NCBI RefSeq assembly: GCF_964204645.1
Contig: NC_134027.1
Location: forward strand, 2,964,485-3,028,484
Source of the DNA: Tubulanus polymorphus
Taxonomy: Eukaryota; Nemertea; Palaeonemertea; Tubulaniformes; Tubulanidae
Reading direction: 5' to 3'
Length of the DNA stretch: 64,000 bases
In this document: positions 8,642-61,784 of the stretch, in pieces
Layout: each line of letters opens with the position of its first letter
Position numbering within the stretch: position 1 is the first letter of the stretch
Notes under the pieces: model-generated
Database searches by the model: none
The model's input: the letters and a program-made list of their open reading frames with translations, nothing else
Told to the model about the DNA's origin: nothing
Position numbers and translations under genes: made by a program

Positions 8642-11600
8642 TTACAGATGTTTAAAGAACCAGTGCACAATATTAACAAATGCATCAGCCTCTGTATCGA
8701 CCTTGTTAAGAGGATGGCTATTGTCTGGATATGCTAACAATCTAAAAGAAAGAACAACACATTAGAAACGAGGATACAACAGAAATACTGCTCGAAATCA
8801 ACAGATAATTGTTACCTAGTCTTTACACCACGAGCTTTGAGCGCTCTTATATATTCGTGTCCTTGTTTCGGGGGAACGCGAAGGTCATCCTTTCCCAACA
8901 TGATCATTACAGGTGTTTGAACTTTATCAACGAACTGCATCGGAGAAACGTCCCACATTCTTTTCATAACATCGGGAGTTGGTAAACATTTAAAGTCATA
9001 GTCATGACCTGACTCGCAATATGTCCTACAAAATCATCATCTTGTTTAAATGGAGACTAGATTAAATGGATCATTAACTGCCATAATTTCTGATCAAACC
9101 TACCAATCGGGAATATCAGTGATCGTAGCCATAGCTGTAAAAAGAGTTTGACAAATATTAGGAGCATGGCTTATGGCTTCACGTTAGTGAGCTACTGATA
9201 TTACAGCAGCTTACAGTTAAATAACATGTTATGAATGACTGGCTTATTTGACTGATTTTGAACCCATAATCTATGGAGTTAGTTGTGAGTTAAAAGTCTT
9301 TATAAAGTTCTACTCATTTTGCTATTTTTAGGGTAACTTACTGGATAAGTTGGTGACAGGATTCCGTGCACAAGCTGCTTTATAAAATCCCTGAAAAAAA
9401 AAGATATTTTAACGCTAAAAAATATGAAATCCTGACAGATGTTCAAAAGTATGGAATATGCTAACTCACTGGATATTGACCGATGAGATGACAGGTAAGA
9501 AATCCACCATGAGAACCACCTAAAACACAACACTTATCCTTATCGACAGGATACTTATCGATTACTTCTTCAATAGCTGCCTGAAAGACACAGATGGATT
9601 GAATAAAATAGCTCTGATAATTCAAAATAGACAAAAGTGAACGAATAGTGAACTTACCTGAACATCTTGTACATCTATTGTTCCGATATGATTAGGTAAA
9701 CAATCGATGAAGTCTTGACCATAAGACCAAGATCCACGATAATTTACTGAAACACAATTACTGTGAGTATTTGTCATGGAAGCATTTCAAGAAACTGCGG
9801 AATATGTGTGAAAATGCATGAAATAACTTACCACAAACGATAGTGAAACCACATCTACACAGCCCAGCAATATACAGCATGAAATCACTATGAAATGATG
9901 AATGAGGTCCACCTAGAATATACATTTCATATACCGTCAACCTTGGTTCATCTGTGCCCAGTTTAACCGTATAAGTTCTTAATTTATACACATAGAGTGT
10001 TCCTGTTTATAAGTAACTTTATTCTCTTTTTAAGTTTTGTGTCTAATTCGTACTCCATAATGGGTATCTTCATTTATTCCATAGACAATTAATACGTGGT
10101 CCTACAGTCCAATTTCTATCAGGTCCATCCTGAGTGACACTGATTAACCGAGGTTGACTTTATTAAATTTATAAATGTGAGGCATCAGGTTTCAATAATT
10201 TCACTAGTGTATAGATACTGACCATGGGGGAAAATAATCACAGGAGATGCATTTATATCACTAGCTGTACTATTTCCAGGTCTTATCAGAATGCTTTCAT
10301 AGCTATTTATATTTTCTTAAAAGAAAAATTGAAAACAAAAATTTGCATTACGCGTATTTGAAATGGAAATGATGAATCTTAATTAAAATCAAGTTTTGAT
10401 AGTGAAGAGACCTGAATACTAACTGTAAAGTGGATTCATTCTTTCAGGAGGAACATCGTGTTTAATTACTGACCAATTTACATCATCGAGTACAACAGGT
10501 GGGGATTTATCAAGCTGGTACCATGTTATATTAGATTCTTGACCTTCAGCTGGTAATTTGCCTATAACCTGGTAATAATTAACCAGAATATATATGTACA
10601 AAAAATAAGTTTATCACTACAGTGTTCTCCGCAAGAAGTTGTAGGCAAGAGCGGTAGCCAACTACATTCACCCCTCTGAAAATCAGTTGCCCCTGTAGAC
10701 GAGTTGATCTCAATGTTTCCTGTCAATGTTCTACATGAGAATTTCTTTATATACCAGTAGTAGTGAGTTATTATCAGGGATGACACCAAAATAAAGCTTA
10801 ATATGCAATGTTTCGAAAGCTTTGCATTTGGCATCGATAACGTTACAGTAAAGAATGAATGGAGGCCCTGTAAAATCCCAGCTTATAGAGAACATCGAAG
10901 CCAATCATTGTTTTCTTACCATATGATGTGGACTATTTGGTGAAGAACGGACAGCAAGAATATAATCATCACAAACATCCAGCACACTACATACGCCATA
11001 TTCATCTACAATTTCATCATATATTCTCACATATTTTCAAATAACATCATTTGATTGATTGTATTTTCTGATTTATACATACTGCTTGAGATCTTTGTTA
11101 CTGCCTTCGTTTCTAGATTGATGACCAGTGTAACCTGTCGAATTTAAATTTAGCCGAATAACCACAAATCATAACAGCTGCAGTTAATCGTATAAAATGC
11201 ATTGCTACTTACTATAGAAGTTCGCCAATGTGAAGTTATAACTATTCTCCGACCGTCATTTGCCCAACACCTTTTAGGAAAGCCTTGCGCATGAATACCG
11301 GGAAACTCACCATCTGAAGACAACATAACAACATGTATCATTGATCAAAAAGGTCAAATTCTAAAATCATATTAACATCCATCTTAATTTCTACCTTCAG
11401 ATGAGCGGATTACATCAACAATTATTGAAGTTTTTTCAGTATTCCAGTTATACTGAAACAGAAATCAAATGAAATCATTATCAAATTAACTGCATGTATT
11501 CTGCATACATTGCTAAAACTGCGACGAATGTTTACCTGCATTAAACTACTGCACTGCATGTGCGGCCCTCCAACTTTGTTTTGTAACCATATTAGTTTGT

Positions 11601-13362
11601 TTCCATTCGGTGAAATGGATGGTGCACGCCGAGATGAAGTCTCCTCGTCATCGCATAATGATGCTGAAATTTATAAAAAGCAATTAAAATAGCGTGTACT
11701 AATTTTCAAAACCATTTTTTCCTGGGATCTTCTACTACTTACAGCAGCTTTTTGATTTAATATCGAAGTAAAAGACTGATGATCTGAAGATATGAAGAAT
11801 TCTTTTATTTGTATTAGTTCAATGAACATGAGGATAAGAGTTGAAGAGAAGCGTGAACAGATAGTACTGTGTAGGTTTAACTGATTTTATTTGCAGCGGT
11901 ACACGGAACCACCTATTTTCACATCTATTGTTTGATTGATACAATAGGCTGAATAAGGCTGAAAAACTCACTTTCTTTGTAGACAGTAAATTAAGCCAAG
12001 TCGGTATGGGTCATGACAGTAACCTATAAACACAATTCCATCATCCGTATGACGCCATTTTGGCTGAAAAGTAGAGATTTTTGGTGAAAGATATTAGTGA
12101 ACTTAAGTAAGTGGGTGTATAGGCTTTATAAGGAATCGTATATTTACTGTCGCAGGGGATAAATCCTCTGGTATTCCATCTAACACAGATATCTCTTCAG
12201 TTTCAATATCTAGAATACAGATGACAGGATGATGCAGACCAACAAGCTGTTCACCCCAGTCTTCACGGAATAGATGTTCATCACCCTGAAATAAAACAGT
12301 TGGATTCACAAAGAGAATTAGCCATCAGTCTTATATCAACCTTACGTGACAGATATAGATATAAATACCTTAGCAACATCTTCGGTAGCTTTTCTAGCCT
12401 CTTCCACGGATGTCGTGCTATTCTTTCGATCGAAAAAAGATTGCGTTTTTGTTAACTTTCTTTCTGCTAAGTACATGAGTTTTTCCTCAGAGGGGGACCA
12501 TTCTAGAGTACCAAACGCCCCTAGTGTCATAAACAAAGTTTAGAGTTTTAATCCGAGTCCGAATAATTTTGATATTTTCTGCACATTTCGACGTTTTTAC
12601 TTACCATCAGCTTTGTAGATTTTTCCATGTTTCTCAAAGGCCAGAATATCAATGTTCTTTATCTTAGTACTTTCTGACCATACCTTTGAAGAAACGAATT
12701 GTGTTACATACATTACCATCTAGGTATTCACAAATGTTTAAGCTTCACTTTAAAATCACATTTTCCACAAACCTCGATGAAAAATTTCTCATCTCCTTTT
12801 TTCGGTGTGAATTTACGGACAACAGCTCTATATTTTCCAGATGGTGAGATCTTATTGTACAATCTAAAGAGAAAACAACTTCCCAATTAAGTTTCTTTCT
12901 GAAATTAAATTTAATAGTATAACCTCGGGTACGTTGATAAGCTTTCATACTCATTTTGTATTTCTTGTGGTGGTGTCACAATAAGCGGTTTTATTTTCTC
13001 TTGCTCAGTTTCTAGGATGTAATGTTTTGTAAATTTAATTTTCTCAACTCGTTCTATATCTCTCTCAGTCCATTCTGTATATACATGTACATTCTTATCT
13101 TGGATATTGTACAATGAACCTTCAGTCGGAGTGGGATATTTAGCCAAATCCCGGTATATGTTTACAACCTCTTCAACCTGCAAGAAATTTTAGGCAAAGA
13201 TACTATCAATCTTAAAAATGGACAAATTCATTTTTATGAATGAATAGACAATAAAATTTGAATGCCGGCGCACATCACTGTATGACTTGTTGTTGACCTA
13301 CTGCGGAGAGTGTAAAAACTCACCATTTTTTCTCTGACATTCACAGATGAACTAGACATCAT
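8642..13362 (-). CDS. APEH: Acylaminoacyl-peptidase (acylamino-acid-releasing enzyme), copy 1, complete, 22 exons, 730 aa
   Basis: Cytosolic S9C serine peptidase that removes N-acylated residues from blocked peptides. Exons, 5' to 3' on the minus strand: 13324-13362, 12951-13177, 12773-12863, 12605-12683, 12369-12520, 12148-12285, 11972-12063, 11743-11783, 11536-11663, 11395-11452, 11213-11313, 11083-11134, 10920-11005, 10424-10568, 10223-10315, 9832-9912, 9658-9746, 9470-9580, 9342-9390, 9104-9134, 8816-9025, 8642-8741. The total is 2193 nt in frame. The N-terminal part forms the beta-propeller. The C-terminal alpha/beta hydrolase has HGGPHSS (oxyanion loop), nucleophile GGSHGG with Ser587, Asp675 in KDDLRVPP, and His707 in NSHPL. 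From memory these numbers equal the human triad (human APEH is 732 aa). The start chosen gives [13 protein letters not shown]; an upstream in-frame ATG (MFCHFAT...) is possible. The exon 2 donor was set at AATGA|GTATGA because this keeps the QNELYN join seen in copy 2. Confidence 0.95.
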
Positions 13363-13453
13363 TGTAGCGAAATGACAAAACATGAGACCTAACACTGAAA
13401 ATGTCACCAGATCGTGAACCGAACCCAATAGATAAGATCAACACCGATCAAAG
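13363..13453. promoter_or_regulatory. Compact bidirectional promoter between APEH copy 1 and MRPL42
   Basis: Only 91 bp separate the two divergent start codons, so both transcripts must start within or very near this interval. No TATA box is visible, as is usual for head-to-head housekeeping pairs. An AAGATGGCGGC sequence, which also matches a YY1-type element, covers the MRPL42 start codon. Confidence 0.65.
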
Positions 13454-14481
13454 ATGGCGGCGCCCATGATGAGAACAGCGACTTCGAAATTACGAACAAT
13501 TTTGCCTCAAACGCTGTCTGTTTGTAATCGTAAGTTATATATTAAGTTACACATGATGAATCATATTAAACTTTATACAATCAAATGGTTTTTACTTAAC
13601 ATATACTCTTGCTTTATGCTTTAAACGAGTTTTTTGCGTTGTAATTGCTAGTTTTCCTAAGTAGGTGGCAGCACTTGACGGTGTTATGTGCAGCGCAACG
13701 TTACTGCTCTGTGCATGTACAGTGTACATGTCCATATTTATTATTTTTCAGGATTTAGCCAGTCGAAATTTTACTTGGGGGCACCCGTTGACAAAACCTT
13801 TCCGTACGTATCTGTCTAAATGACAATCTCGGATACTTATTGTATCGCCTGCTGTTTACATACCATTCTCATATACATTTGTTTTATTAGAAACCCTGCG
13901 ATAGTTTTATCCAAAGATGGGGCGACTGTCGTGTGCTGGCACCCAGAGGAAGAATTCCCTTATGAATTAACCAAGGTAGATGTAATTATCATCCCTCATT
14001 TTCTCGGTTCATAACCTAGCCCTTGACGGTTAACTATTATTACATTTGTACATTTTAGCAAGTACTGTTACGAGATAACTTATGCATTGATCTTTTTATT
14101 TCAGCCATTACCAAGATCTGTTCCAGAAATGGAGGAGGTTTGTAGAATTAAAACGAGATATTTCCTTATTTTGATCAGAATTTCAACGATTGAACCAGAT
14201 GTATATTTTTCTATTTAGGGCGATTCCTTGTTGAAAGTTCAATATCTTGAGAAAGACAAATTCGAAGGTAAACCCATGGAAGTAGTAAATAGAGAGCTTG
14301 CTGAAATGTTTTATACTTCACGTCATCCATGGGACATAAAGTGAGTTTATTTGATAGACCTTATCCAAAAATGACGATTTGAAATCGTATCAATGGATAT
14401 TATGACGATACTTTCTTACTTTTTAGGCCACAAAAGAAGAGAATAAAGCCTAACCCACCAAAAGATCGTGAGAGCATCTAG
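13454..14481 (+). CDS. MRPL42: Mitochondrial ribosomal protein mL42 (MRPL42), complete, 6 exons, 140 aa
   Basis: Structural protein of the mitochondrial large ribosomal subunit. Exons: 13454-13529, 13752-13803, 13891-13975, 14105-14137, 14219-14340, 14427-14481; the total is 423 nt in frame with GT/AG borders. The first 25 residues are rich in Arg, Thr and Ser without acidic residues, so they act as a mitochondrial presequence. The diagnostic core is IVLSKDGATVVCWHPEEEFPYE followed by TKPLPR, then ELAEMFYTSRHPW and a C-terminal NPPKDR close to the end. The human protein has the same layout (TSDGRTIVCYHP, PYEHTKPIPR, FFTTKHRW, NLNPPKDR) and 142 aa. It is divergent from APEH copy 1 and convergent with APEH copy 2. 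Confidence 0.93.
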
Positions 14482-14792: not shown

Positions 14793-17700
14793 TCAACTTT
14801 GTGCACAATATTCCGAGCTGCTGTCGTTATCCATGTGTTGTTTGAACCAGTTGATTAGATTTATGAACCAGTCGGCTTCAACGTCAATTTTCATCAGCGG
14901 ATGAGCGTCTTCATAATAGTGCAGTCTGGATATGTAATATGCAAAGAAGACGGAAAATATATATAACAAGAATTGATTTATATCCGAGCAAGAGCATAGC
15001 CAGTATCTTACACTGAAACCCCGATCCTTCACTTTTTTGGCAAAGTTATTTTCAAAACGCACTAATCCACAAACTAGCTGGACGAGTTCAGGAGTCTAAA
15101 TCAATCACATAATTATATCAAATCTTGATTTTATTGCGTTTAAAAGTGATAATAAATTGATATCGTGGGATATACACGTTCACATTTTCGTGACAATTTT
15201 TGAAATCCTAAGCTAACGCCCCTGTTCTTCATTAATTGATTTATCACATAGCTTACCTGGTCTCGGCTCCTCTGGCTTTCAGGGCGCGGAAATAAGCAAG
15301 ACCCTGACTAGGAGGCACTCGCTCGTCGTATTTACCAATGAAGAATATCGTGGGCGTTTTAACTCGGTCGACGTATTGCATCGGAGATAGAGACCACATT
15401 CTACTCATCATGTCGTCTGTCACTAACATTTTGTAATCAAAATCGTATCCGCATTCGTACAATGCCCTATTAATGTAAACAGCGACAATCAATAATCAAA
15501 TCCACTTGTCCAAAATAATGGACATCTTAATTACTATATGGTATAATGTGTTTTATCAAACAGTCTTGGGGTTGTATTAATGCTTAACAATCTATGTTTG
15601 AAAATGTAGATTCTGAAAATGTCCTCACCAACAAATTAACACAATACGCATTGGATATTACCAGGCATGAGGAAGAAAACCTATCCGTGCATAAATATGT
15701 ATATATATTGCCAAATAACGGTGTCTACTTTGCCTTTTCATCCATGTAACTATGTAATTTTAATATCAATCAGAATCATTCAATAAGGTAGTTCTCAGAT
15801 TCTTTGTTGTTCTACAAAAAATTACATTTTCGCTCAGAACAAAACAAAACAAATACATACAAATACCAAATAAACGCCTCACTCGAAAGTTAGCACACAG
15901 ACTAAGATATCATAATAAATACGATTCACACCCAAGGTCGTGTTGGGTTAGGGTTTCTAATAATCTTACAAGTACACGTTAGGGACAGACAAACATATCG
16001 AAATATTATTAGTATTTGTATTATTTGTACATGTAGACAGAAATGGTTGCGCATATTTTAGAGCATCTGACAACACGTGCACAAGAACATAACACTGAGA
16101 TATTATGATAAATAAACTTGAATATTTTCAAAAAGGCTACATTTACCAATCAGGAATATCTGAAGCTTTAGTAAATGCTGAAATGATTTAAGAAATTTAG
16201 TTGATTGAATTAATAGAGCAATTTGATTAATAAATTCATTGATTCATTCAAAGCCATACAGGGCACTTACTCGCGAGATTGGTTGAAGGATTCCTCATAC
16301 TAGCGGCCTTGTAGAAATCCTTAAAATGAAATTTTGAAAAAATTCACGTCAGTACAAAATAGAATGAAATAAAGTTTTACGTGAATTTGAAAACAGAATT
16401 GTTTCACCAACCGGATATTGTCCAATAACTTGCAATGCTAAGGTACCACCATAAGAACCTCCAAACACAAAACAGTTAGTTCCATCTACGGGATATTTGC
16501 CAATAACCTCATTAATTGCACTCTGTTAAAAATACATTTGTATATAAATTAATACGCGTGAAATTATATTACTGGTAAGTATGATACTTACATTTAGGAA
16601 TTCATTTACCTGTATATCTTCCACATCCATTGTTCCTATTTTGGTTCTGGTACATTCAATTGAATCTTGTCCATAGCCCCACGAACCACGATAGTTGACT
16701 GGAATAAAGCAGACAAATGTCTAGGTTCAAAAATGCTTGTTGTTGCTATCGATATTGTTCTTCGCAAATATTATTTCTTACCACATAAAACTGTGAACCC
16801 AGCCTTGCAGAGACCAGCGAAAATTAAGGTGAAACCAGAATTAGCAACAATATGAGGACCGCCTAAAACATGAGTAAACTTGCGTGATTTGAAAGAAAGA
16901 TGTATGGCGTGCTAGTGAGGACGAAGCTGTACTGACCATGGATATAGACAGCTACAGGGGATTTCTTAAGTTCAATTTTCGATGAATTTGGTTGTATAAG
17001 AATACTATGGAAATGATCTAACTGAGCTGAAATGAGATATAACAAGTTAGCGTATAACAAGTATATTATCAATGAGCACAAAGTCGGTAAAAAAAGCCAG
17101 TACCAATGGACGTTACTTACGATATTCAGGATGTATTCTTTCAGGAGGTATATCGTGTTTAATTACTGACCAATTGACATCATTAAATACAACGGGTGAT
17201 GTTCTATCAAGCTGGTGCCATGTTATACTTGATTCTTCCCCTTCGGCTGGTAATTTTCCCATTACCTATAAACATGATTTCATTTGTCCGAATAAAAACT
17301 AACAAGAACCGATTTGGTAATCGAATTTTCAGGGGAAATTGCGGTCATCTTGTTTTTCTTACAAGGTAATAAGGGGTATCGATAGATGCACAAGCCACCA
17401 GTACATAATCGTCTAACACGTCAAGAACAAACCAAGCGCCTTCACATTCTGAAATAATGGTAAAACGTAAAACGTAGATATATCTGGTGTTTCATTGATA
17501 ACTTTAAGCAGGTAGTTAATAACCTGTCTACGAGGTAACCACTAACCTTTAGATATTCTTGTAACCGATTTCGTTCTAAGATTTATGACTGCAGACTCCT
17601 GAAAAAATCACGAAAACATTAGCGTCCAAATTGAGTAAAACATCGATGATTAAAGAATAAAGACATATGATCGATAGCCTTACAATTCTGTTTCGCCATT

Positions 17701-20700
17701 GTGATGTAAGTATAACTCTGTTGCTATCATTTGACCAATATCTTCTACATAGTCCTGTAGCATACAGGTAAATTCCAGGAAATTCATGATCTAGAAGATC
17801 AGAAACCGTATGTATACATATATATGTTCGTCAGCATATCAGAAGCTATTAGCGAAAGTGAATTTGACTCTACCTTTTGGCGACTGGACAATATCTACAA
17901 CAGTAGAAATCTCTTTGGTTTCCCAGTCACACTATAAGTATACCAATACAATATCTTGGACATGATTGTATACGTTTAAAGTTAAGAATGGATGATAGAA
18001 ACAAAAGAAATCAACATATAGGCTTAGGCCTAAACGCGGTACGAGGATTCTTCTCAGTAAAACATACCATTTTCTGCAATAGAAAAGACAAAAAACATCA
18101 AAGTAAAAAATTCCTCATTTTTTTCAACAGATTTTGATGATTCCGTGGATTTTGTATTGGCATACTTGTATACGTACCAAGACCACACTGCCAGAATGTA
18201 TTTTTGCGCCATCGAGAGGATGTTGTAGCCACGTGATTTTCTTTCCATCGGGACTTGTAGAAACTTCTTGACATGCATAAGTTTCGCCCCGAGACAGCAT
18301 GGCTGAGATTTTTGAATAATAATTACATAGTATAATTGAATAATGTATATAATTATCAGGTAATAATGTATATCATTATGAAAGTTTGCTTACTACATTG
18401 TGATGATTTCATATCCACGTAAAATATCGATGATCTGTAACAAATAATATCAAACTACTAGAAAATTACGAACAATCGTGAGAAAATTGTCATTGCAGCC
18501 GAGAGCGACTTACTTCCTCTGTCTTGTATATAAAAGTCCAAGGCGATACGGATCATGGAAATACCCAGTGAAAACAATACCTTCATTACCTCGAAACCAT
18601 CGTGGCTACAAATGAATAAATGTGCCATCTTTTGTTGGTTTTTCTTGTAAATATCAAATCAGATTTTACGTTACTTATACGTATACGTTACCTTAGCTGG
18701 GGACACATTATCTGGTACTTGATCTATTACAGATATCTCCTGTGTTTCGATATAAAAAATGCATATGACTGAATGATGATACTCGGAGAATTGATCACCC
18801 CAGCCTTCTTTGAATAAGGTTTTATCGCCCTAAAATTGAAAGGATGAAAATCTAGATGAGAAGAAATACTTCATGGTAAAATTTCAAACGTATTATACTC
18901 GTAACTGACCTTGCCAACATCCGAACCGGCATTCGTCTTATCGAAAAAAGACCGTGATTCATTCTTTTTCTCAGCAAGATACATAAGCTTTTTATCACAT
19001 GATGACCATTCAAATACACCGAATGAACCTTAATGAATATTTCTCTTTCACAACTATTCGCAATTTAATGAATATTGGTGAACGGACAATATCTTAAACC
19101 TAACATTGATGTAGATTCATCTTAAACTTACTGTCGTTTGAATAGATCTTCCCATGTTTCCCACATGCTTCCAGGTCTATATTCTGTAATTTCAATTTCT
19201 CTGACCACACCTAGATTTAAACATGGGTCATTTCTAATGGATTAAAAATCTTGGGTGATCTATAATGCCAAAGAAGCGGACATAGGTAATTATCTTCATA
19301 GGATATTTGGAAAATGCCCATGTTTCCATTGAATTATATATAAATTGAATACCTCCTTAATTCTATGCTTACTTCGATAAAATGCTTCGTTTCTCCCGAT
19401 TTTGATTTCAGCTTACGAACTATTGCACGCAATGTTCCTGACGTAGATAATCTACTGTAAAGCCTGCAATAACCGAATGACAGATGTAGGCCTACGTGTA
19501 TGGGCGGCCATTCCCGCCAAAAATCAGCGTTTCGTCTATTTGTCTGTACTTTGTCAAAATGTCATAGTACACCGCCAAAATGTGTAAGCGTAACGTCAAA
19601 TTGTGTAATGCGGCTAAATAACACAGGCGGCGACACTGTACGGACAGTATTTCGCGGTATTTTTCTCGCTTTGCGATCATCTCAAGGTCGTCTCATTGAA
19701 ATAATTTTGCGAGTATCAAATCGACAAATCGTATCGTATTCAAGGAAATGTATAAGTAACTCGTAAAACGTAAATCGTAACTCGTAAAACGTAACTCGTA
19801 AAACGTAAATCGTAAAACGTAACTCGTATGGCCCTTCCATATCATAACGAGCGTTTGTTATCTTTCATCATTAAAACCCGAGCAGATTCATCGAGAGTCG
19901 AGCACAGGGGCTCGTTACGATAGCTGGGGGTCCAAAATCAAAGATTTGACCCAGTATCCTAGGTACCACCTATAAAAAAAGAATTTTTTTCTTTTTTTAT
20001 AGGTGGTACCTAGGATACTGGGTCAAATCTTTGATTTTGGACCCCCAGCTATCGTAACGAGCCCCTGTGGAGTCGAGAGTCACCGGTTATTCGGAGTCAC
20101 CCTTTTCTCTAGCCCGAGCACAGAAAATCCGAGCTACCTACCAGAGGAGGAACGGAAGCGCCCTTCAACATACCATGGCATTGTCATTGATCGCTGGTTA
20201 TTCAGTGTCGTCTAAGCCTGAGACGCGGGTCTTTGATAGAGCATCGTGTTTACATTCGACGTTTCGGTATCGCAGGCTCTTTTCATTAGACGAACTCATG
20301 AACTTGAGAACTCAGGAAGTTATGAACTCGGAACTCATGAACTCAAGATGTCGTCTCAGGGCTTCCATAGGTTTACGGCAAAGTATTTACTTCCGCTATT
20401 TTACCGTACATTATTATTATATATTATAGTATTAACTAACTAAAGTAACAATAAAATCATTTTATTGGGTTTAGGTAATATGATACGATTTGTCGATTTG
20501 ATACGAGCAAAATTATTTCAATAAAACGACCTTGATATGATCGCAATGCGAGAAAAATACCGCAAAATACTGTCCGTACAGTGTCGCCCCCCTCAGGCTG
20601 CTTGATTCGACGATTCGGAGTACTCCGAATATTACTCTGGAGCACACCGGAAACAAGCGGTATCCGTGTTATCAGAGTAACAAATATGGTGGACAAGGCG

Positions 20701-21824
20701 GTATTATTTCGATCGTTCATCCCATTATTGTTGGAAGAATGTATGGAGGAAGCCTTCTACACGGAAGTTAATGGCCACTGCTAGGAGGAATAGAATTGCT
20801 GATAATTTCATGAAACAAACAACTAGAAGTTAATGATAAATAAAAACTTATTTATTGCAACTTGAATAAAATTTAACAAAAATAAAATAAAATTACAAAA
20901 ACTCGTTGTTACAAAAAAGTTGTTACTGAAAATATTTTTCATGTAAAAAAAGCAGCTTATCCGATTTTTAATTCTTTGATTTAATTCTTCTTCAAGTCCT
21001 TAAACAGGTCCAAGAAGCCCTTCATAACGGTCATTCTGTCATTATGCATACGTTCCTGTTGGGCCCTAGCAGAATCCTACCATTCCCTTTGTTCGGCCAG
21101 TAACGCCATCTTGCGGTACACCTATCACACCGTTGATTTTCTCTGGGTAGCAGTGGAGAGTCCGGAGTAGTGCTCCCGCCTACTTGATTCACTAGTGTAT
21201 TACTTGGTGTACTCCGGGTAACGAATCAAGCACCCTGCCGCATTACACAATTTGACGTTACGCTAACACATTTTGGCGGTGTACTATAACATTTTGTCAA
21301 AGTACAGACAAATAGACGAAACGCTGATTTTTGGCGGGAATGGCCGCCCATATACGTGCGTTTATCGTAGAATCACATCATATGTTAGGGATTGGAATAC
21401 ACGCATATCACGCGTATGATAAGCTTGAATGTTTTAACGTTCGTCTCGGAATATGCTTTCCGGGTCTCAAGTGGATTATACATATGTTGATAGAACAAAA
21501 AGAAAATCTTACTCATTTTGTATTTCTTGTGGTGGTGTCACAATAAGCGGTTTTATTTTCTCTTGCTCAGTTTCTAGGATGTAATGTTTTGTAAATTTAA
21601 TTTTCTCAACTCGTTCTATATCTCTCTCAGTCCATTCTGTGTATACATGAACATTCTTATCTTGGATATTGTACAATGAACCTTCAGTCGGAGTGGGATA
21701 TTTAGCCAAATCCCGGTATATGTTTACCACCTCTTCAACCTATAGAGTATAATACCGGTAAAACCACCAAAAAAAATGTAAAGCCTGTGACACGATCAAT
21801 AATAATATAAATGTAACTCACCAT
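14793..21824 (-). CDS. APEH: Acylaminoacyl-peptidase paralogue, copy 2, complete, 22 exons, 718 aa
   Basis: Tandem paralogue of the 8642-13362 gene in the same orientation, with MRPL42 between. Exons, 5' to 3': 21822-21824 (start codon only), 21513-21739, 19373-19463, 19132-19210, 18910-19028, 18692-18829, 18514-18605, 18394-18434, 18178-18302, 17874-17931, 17684-17790, 17547-17598, 17363-17448, 17121-17265, 16937-17026, 16782-16862, 16610-16698, 16412-16522, 16271-16319, 16147-16177, 15257-15466, 14793-14925. Every intron position and phase matches copy 1, and the total is 2157 nt in frame. The triad is kept: Ser564 in GGSYGG, Asp652 in KYDERVPP, His684 in EDAHPL. Changes: His-to-Tyr after the nucleophile, ARNP to MRNP, HGGPHSS to HGGPHIV, an 11-residue loss in the exon at 18910 and an 11-residue longer C-terminus. 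It is probably active with a shifted acyl-peptide preference (inference). Intron 2 carries nested transposons. The start is uncertain: the 5' exon is open upstream only to a nearby stop, so the ATG at the exon end is the only visible start. Confidence 0.9.
19755..19828 (+). repeat. Short tandem repeat of CGTAAAACGTAACT-like units
   Basis: Five to six alternating copies of CGTAAAA/CGTAACT/CGTAAAT words in a row, lying between the left TIR and the palindrome of the inner element. This subterminal repetition is typical of transposase-binding regions, though no function is shown. Confidence 0.6.
19904..20068. repeat. Near-perfect palindrome, 78-bp arms with a 9-bp spacer
   Basis: The left arm (19904-19981) starts ACAGGGGCTCGTTACGATAG and is matched by its reverse complement in 19991-20068, with AATTTTTTT as spacer. 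In RNA it would form a long hairpin inside the APEH intron. It may be a foldback element or a third insertion inside the inner transposon. Confidence 0.85.
20595..21238. mobile_element. Third TIR unit, non-autonomous, with a PIF/Harbinger-like remnant
   Basis: The left end, GGCTGCTTGATTCG then CGGAGTACTCC, mirrors the right end at about 21190-21238 (GGGTGCTTGATTCG then CGGAGTACACC on the minus strand). On the minus strand near 21110-20985 a broken reading frame gives MALLAEQREW, then a stop, then an ERMHNDRMTVMKGFLDLFK-type tail. This resembles the C-terminal coiled region of the Myb/trihelix-like accessory protein carried by PIF/Harbinger elements. An internal stop and the short length show it is dead. 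The superfamily is a suggestion only. Confidence 0.5.

Positions 21825-33261: not shown

Positions 33262-61784
<28,523 letters not shown>

What the first reader, a model, noticed from the sequence alone, without database searches (positions are those of the whole stretch)
21513..21739. APEH exon 2 is almost identical between two otherwise diverged paralogues, and only within the exon
Copy 1 exon 2 (12951-13177) and copy 2 exon 2 (21513-21739) are both 227 nt. I count only three differences, all synonymous. The other 20 shared coding exons differ at many amino acids. The flanking introns lose similarity within a few bases of each border. Ordinary gene conversion would be expected to run into the introns. 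Exon-limited identity suggests conversion through a spliced RNA/cDNA intermediate, very strong nucleotide-level constraint, or a recent exon transfer, possibly linked to the transposon cluster next to copy 2 exon 2.
Basis: seen in the sequence. Interest (0 to 1): 0.7.

Follow-up and report, generated by a model that had tools for sequence, protein, structure and literature searches.

The report
One exon copied between sister genes
Two old, strongly diverged copies of a peptide-digesting enzyme gene share one almost identical exon, most simply because one copy overwrote the other there by ordinary gene conversion, which had to stop at the exon edges since the introns no longer match.

Summary
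Two same-strand APEH genes, modelled with 22 exons each, lie at 8642-13362 and 14793-21824. Exon 2 differs at 3 of 227 bases, all synonymous (dS about 0.07). The 20 other shared exons average 54.5% amino-acid and 61% nucleotide identity, with synonymous sites saturated. Exon 2 is not specially constrained: 35% identical to pig APEH, against 42% and 39% for the rest of copies 1 and 2. So it was homogenised recently.

None of 21 intron pairs has detectable similarity, so every exon is an island of homology and ordinary gene conversion must also end at its borders. A spliced-RNA template is not needed, though not excluded. The introns are all kept, exon 2 occurs only twice in the genome, and the nearby transposon lies beside the exon, not around it.

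Addition: exon 14 (81% identical) is a second outlier, probably an older exon-limited event.

Open: donor direction, template, whether a further diverged APEH copy exists (search did not complete), and how conversion worked on a 227-bp island. A new case of a known process.

The parts
21513..21739 (-). APEH copy 2 exon 2 (227 nt; 75 codons + 2 nt), near-identical to copy 1 exon 2
12951..13177 (-). APEH copy 1 exon 2, partner of the tract
8642..13362 (-). APEH copy 1, 22 modelled exons, intact 730-aa reading frame
   Evidence: model from paired alignment and splice sites, no RNA data; Pfam APEH_N and Peptidase_S9
14793..21824 (-). APEH copy 2, 22 modelled exons, intact 718-aa reading frame
   Evidence: Pfam; best PDB match 7px8, E 5.7e-144
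10424..10568 (-). APEH copy 1 exon 14, second and probably older exon-limited tract
   Evidence: 81% nt, pS 0.41; permutation p 5e-5; two genome matches only
17121..17265 (-). APEH copy 2 exon 14, partner of the older tract
13324..13362 (-). APEH copy 1 exon 1 (13 codons, ends ATG|GTGAGT)
   Evidence: read; used in the model
21822..21824 (-). APEH copy 2 coding part of exon 1 (the start codon alone, followed by GTGAGT)
   Evidence: read; used in the model
19499..21352 (.). DNA transposon in intron 2 of copy 2, inverted ends of about 120 bp, TACGTG repeat on either side; beside the exon and not part of the tract
   Evidence: ends of the family are dispersed in the genome (40 matches scored of 85 candidates)

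Best explanation
Interlocus gene conversion between two old, functional, same-strand APEH paralogues about 8.6 kb apart homogenised exon 2. Since all introns have diverged past recognition, each exon is an isolated island of homology in non-homologous DNA, so strand exchange and mismatch correction end at the exon edges by necessity. Shown: the tract, its borders, the saturation of the other exons, the loss of intron homology, the lack of special constraint. Inferred: that the template was DNA; that exon 2 stayed convertible because it is the longest exon (227 nt, about the size of the yeast minimal efficient processing segment) and was kept similar by repeated events, the last at dS about 0.07; that exon 14 records an older event (dS 0.59). 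After the last event both copies stayed under purifying selection: 3 synonymous and 0 amino-acid changes.
For: 224 of 227 identical with saturated pS elsewhere. 0 of 21 intron pairs similar. Exon 2 not constrained relative to pig APEH, 35% against 42%/39%. Only two copies of exon 2 in the genome at E <= 0.001, so no third donor close in DNA. Exon 14 behaves alike at lower identity: 73% aa between copies, 30% and 35% to pig; identical codons in 24 of 33 same-residue columns against 116 of 286 elsewhere. 3 synonymous and 0 non-synonymous differences, Fisher p 0.009. Literature: conversions between paralogues are usually reported for exons and intron divergence may impede them (PMC3966223, section 4.2 read); minimal efficient segment about 200 bp in yeast, conversion possible but rarer below 80% identity (PMC3924818, passages).
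Against: The other exons are now 61% identical, far below the 80% or more at which conversion mainly occurs (PMC3924818, passages); a single recent event on such a substrate is hard, so repeated events must be assumed. Mouse needed 2.5 kb of identity for efficient ectopic conversion (PMC3966223, passages). Exon 21 (210 nt) is nearly as long but unconverted, and exon length does not predict identity (Spearman rho 0.22, p 0.34; without exon 2 rho 0.10, p 0.69). Identity runs to both exon edges instead of ending raggedly inside. In C. elegans and primate ADH1 tracts often include introns. No relatives, reads or individuals were available.
Confidence: 0.78

Rival explanations
1. Conversion templated by spliced RNA or cDNA of one copy, recombining with the other gene within exon 2.
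For: The tract ends within 2-3 nt of both splice junctions, as a spliced template would also give. The two genes are neighbours and look functional.
Against: Does not predict anything that DNA conversion between genes without intron homology does not. Tracts spanning two exons would delete introns; all 21 introns are present in both modelled genes. No retrocopy holding exon 2 or exon 14 was found (two matches each); a retrocopy of other exons was not searched for.
Confidence: 0.1
2. Extreme nucleotide-level constraint on exon 2 (for example an overlapping regulatory or splicing code).
For: All three differences are synonymous.
Against: Exon 2 is 35% identical to pig APEH, lower than the mean of the other exons, though the mammal is the only outgroup used. 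Constraint would have to hold 71 of 74 same-residue degenerate codons identical, against 140 of 319 in the other exons.
Confidence: 0.03
3. Recent insertion or transposon-borne transfer of the exon into one gene without homology.
For: A transposon sits 160 nt from copy 2 exon 2; its relatives' ends are 96-98% identical to it (40 of 85 candidates scored), so the family was active recently.
Against: A non-homologous insertion would carry flanking intron or break at random; both borders fall at the splice junctions and each copy uses its own unrelated acceptor and donor context. The element does not contain the exon, and exon 2 matches nothing else in the genome.
Confidence: 0.03
4. Assembly or polishing artefact.
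For: No reads could be inspected.
Against: The flanks of the two exons are unique and unrelated, and three real differences remain. Polishing would need reads from 61%-identical neighbours to be cross-mapped (inference).
Confidence: 0.04

Closest known systems
Interlocus (ectopic) gene conversion between gene duplicates, reported mainly for exons
   Same: Local tract of high identity, synonymous sites included, between otherwise diverged neighbours; the tract ends where homology ends (PMC3966223, section 4.2 read; PMC3924818, passages).
   Different: The surrounding genes are far more diverged (61% nt) than usual conversion partners, and the tract is exactly one whole exon.
Mosaic concerted evolution of mammalian gene pairs (BMP8A/B, DDX19A/B, TUBG1/2)
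   Same: Some exons evolve in concert and others divergently within one gene pair (PMC2720389, passages).
   Different: There the converted fragments span several exons with their introns; here all introns are diverged.
Conversion in primate ADH1 genes
   Same: Conversion between tandem enzyme genes, seen as mosaic similarity (PMC3409193, passages).
   Different: Their introns are still alignable and tracts cross exon-intron boundaries.
cDNA- or mRNA-mediated recombination, as proposed for intron loss
   Same: Would also give exon-bounded tracts (PMC3652778, abstract start in listing).
   Different: Its hallmark, precise intron loss, is absent here.

Membership tests
Interlocus gene conversion | Tract of excess identity including synonymous sites against a diverged background | tested here: met
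   Exon 2 pS 0.06 against 0.785 for the other 20 exons
Interlocus gene conversion | Tract bounded by loss of homology or by random end points | tested here: met
   Ends at the splice junctions, where homology ends; 0 of 21 intron pairs similar
Interlocus gene conversion | Excess identity not explained by protein constraint | tested here: met
   35% identity of exon 2 to pig APEH against 42%/39% elsewhere; one outgroup only
Interlocus gene conversion | Paralogues within a species closer than orthologues between species | not testable with these tools
   No related genome held: own genome has no relatives here; viral contigs and genome contigs gave no relative
Interlocus gene conversion | Donor and recipient identified | tested here: inconclusive
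   Residues shared with pig by one copy only: 69 in copy 1, 48 in copy 2, p 0.064; GC3 of the two copies does not differ, p 0.15
cDNA-mediated conversion | Intron loss or multi-exon intron-free tract, or a retrocopy donor | tested here: not met
   All 21 introns present in both; exon 2 and exon 14 each match only the two genes. Retrocopies without these exons not searched for
Transposon-borne exon capture | Exon inside an element, or further element copies carrying it | tested here: not met
   Element 19499-21352 ends 160 nt short of the exon; no other exon 2 match in the genome
APEH (S9 acylaminoacyl-peptide hydrolase) | APEH N-terminal domain plus S9 catalytic domain | tested here: met
   PF19283 and PF00326 above cut-off in both copies
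APEH (S9 acylaminoacyl-peptide hydrolase) | Ser-Asp-His triad | tested here: met
   Both copies keep S, D and H at the pig positions in the alignment; Ser587 and His707 named in PMC12514842 (passages), the Asp position is recalled

The most novel reading that the evidence does not exclude
Exons of these genes are repeatedly overwritten one whole exon at a time (exon 2 recently, exon 14 earlier) from a spliced RNA or cDNA of the neighbouring gene, so that the exon, as the unit present in mature RNA, is also the unit of concerted evolution.
Probability: 0.08. Interest if true: 0.65.

Novelty: new member of a known kind. Interest (0 to 1): 0.3.

Why it matters
It is a clean natural case of conversion between genes whose introns are unalignable and whose other exons are 61% identical, so it bears on how short and isolated an island of homology can be and still be converted. 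It also warns that exon-bounded identity alone is no evidence for an RNA template.

Tried and rejected
Extreme constraint: rejected on the comparison with pig APEH. Transposon capture: rejected. Donor direction from GC3 or from relative rate: inconclusive. Exon length as the reason that exon 2 was chosen: suggestive only, since the correlation is absent. Relatives outside the genome: viral contigs with exon 2 (14 pattern matches, none confirmed) and genome contigs with copy 2 (7 pattern matches, none confirmed). Background sample: 264 kb around and including the window, protein self-comparison within 60 kb; the APEH pair was the only long collinear chain of exons I saw in the list. A minus-strand cluster of similar segments about 47 to 39 kb before the window (31-75% aa identity) was not resolved into genes, and the sample is too small for a rate. 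Whether the genome has a further, diverged APEH copy is unanswered: the protein search did not complete, and the PF19283 family search found nothing but also rang in 0 of 14 control genomes, so it says nothing. Paper searches; one search returned none, three listings each, which I did not open for those terms.

Full report
What is there. The window lies in a 268-Mb, 77-contig genome, at C3:2964485-3028484. On the minus strand are two APEH genes. A paired splice-site and alignment model gives 22 exons in each, with the same intron phases and intact frames of 730 and 718 aa (no RNA evidence). Both carry the APEH N-terminal and S9 domains; copy 2 has pig APEH 7px8 as best solved relative, E 5.7e-144 (copy 1 was not run there in full). 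A gene resembling mitochondrial ribosomal protein L42 lies between them on the plus strand (MRP-S32 domain, E 7.3e-20, on a hand-joined piece).

The observation. Exon 2 differs at 3 of 227 positions, all third codon positions and synonymous. pS is 0.06 and dS 0.07, with a Poisson interval of 0.013 to 0.216. The other 20 shared exons, 616 aligned codons, have 54.5% aa identity, 61.0% nt identity and pS 0.785; the best of them is exon 14 at 81%. Chance at the background rate is 1.1e-43. The finding stands as described.

Why constraint does not explain it. Against pig APEH, exon 2 is 35% identical over 69 aligned residues, while the other exons average 42% in copy 1 and 39% in copy 2 over 619. 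Seven exons of copy 1 are lower still, so exon 2 is unremarkable. Yet 71 of 74 same-residue degenerate codons are identical between the copies, against 140 of 319 in the other exons. An exon free to drift from mammals but frozen between neighbours has been homogenised. Only one outgroup was available.

Why it stops at the exon edges. For each of the 21 intron pairs a sensitive BLASTN found nothing at E 0.01. At every exon the match ends with the splice signal: 2-4 nt upstream and 0-9 nt downstream. Exon 2, with 2 and 3 nt, is like the rest. So homology between the genes is already chopped into exons. Conversion depends on homology and must end there. A review of Caenorhabditis paralogues says that conversions are usually reported for exons and that intron divergence may impede them; the same section adds that in C. 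elegans tracts often include introns, with 15% of detected events extending into introns in one survey (PMC3966223, section 4.2 read). In primate ADH1 and in three mammalian gene pairs, tracts cross introns (passages).

A second exon. Exon 14 has 81% nt identity, pS 0.41 (dS 0.59), and none of 20,000 permutations over exons of 25 codons or more reached it. Identical codons make 24 of 33 same-residue columns, against 116 of 286 elsewhere (binomial 1.8e-4, 0.004 after correction for 21 exons). To pig it is only 30% and 35% identical. Its neighbours, exons 13 and 15, are at 52% and 53% nt. I read it as an older event of the same kind; local constraint within this group of animals cannot be excluded.

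Mechanism. Best reading: DNA-templated interlocus conversion, probably repeated. A yeast-based review gives a minimal efficient segment near 200 bp, says conversion mainly occurs above 80% identity, and that it is possible but rarer below (PMC3924818, passages). Exon 2 is the longest exon at 227 nt. But exon 21, at 210 nt, is 59% identical and unconverted, and across exons length does not predict identity. Since the other exons are at 61%, a single late event on such a substrate is difficult; repeated events that kept exon 2 similar from early on are easier to accept. This is inference. Since the last event 3 synonymous and no amino-acid changes accrued (Fisher p 0.009), as expected if both copies are under purifying selection.

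Template and direction. A cDNA template would be limited by the same exon edges and is not excluded. Its hallmark, intron loss, is absent, and exon 2 and exon 14 each match only the two genes in the genome. Direction is open: copy 1 alone shares 69 residues with pig, copy 2 alone 48 (p 0.064), and GC3 is uninformative (p 0.15).

The transposon. Intron 2 of copy 2 is 2049 nt against 87 nt in copy 1. It holds an element, about 19499-21352, with inverted ends (121-nt match, 96.7%) and TACGTG on either side; a second inverted pair is nested inside. Ends of these families are dispersed in the genome at 96-98% identity (40 matches scored of 85 candidates). The element ends 160 nt short of exon 2. 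A break made by it could have started repair, but nothing shows that.

Limits. No reads, individuals or relatives. The search for further, diverged APEH copies did not complete. The 264-kb background sample is too small for a rate.

Noticed in passing
10424-10568 and 17121-17265: Exon 14 of the two APEH genes is a second, weaker exon-limited island of identity (81% nt, pS 0.41).
   Followed up: yes
about 13436-14478, plus strand: A gene resembling mitochondrial ribosomal protein L42 (MRP-S32 domain) lies between the two APEH copies, head to head with copy 1; its likely start codon is about 100 bp from that of copy 1.
   Followed up: partly
19499-21352: Composite DNA transposon with nested inverted ends in intron 2 of APEH copy 2; its ends are dispersed in the genome at 96-98% identity (40 of 85 candidates scored).
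   Followed up: partly
16412-16522: Copy 2 has Tyr where copy 1 and pig APEH have His next to the catalytic Ser (GGSYGG against GGSHGG), so the two enzymes may differ in the oxyanion site.
   Followed up: no
L011:9802 to L012:742 and L012:2801-3741: Direct repeat of about 940 bp, translated segments 100% identical, exactly 2999 bases apart, about 10 kb before the window.
   Followed up: no
49620-49873: Short tandem array with a unit of about 50 bp, 94-97% identical copies.
   Followed up: no
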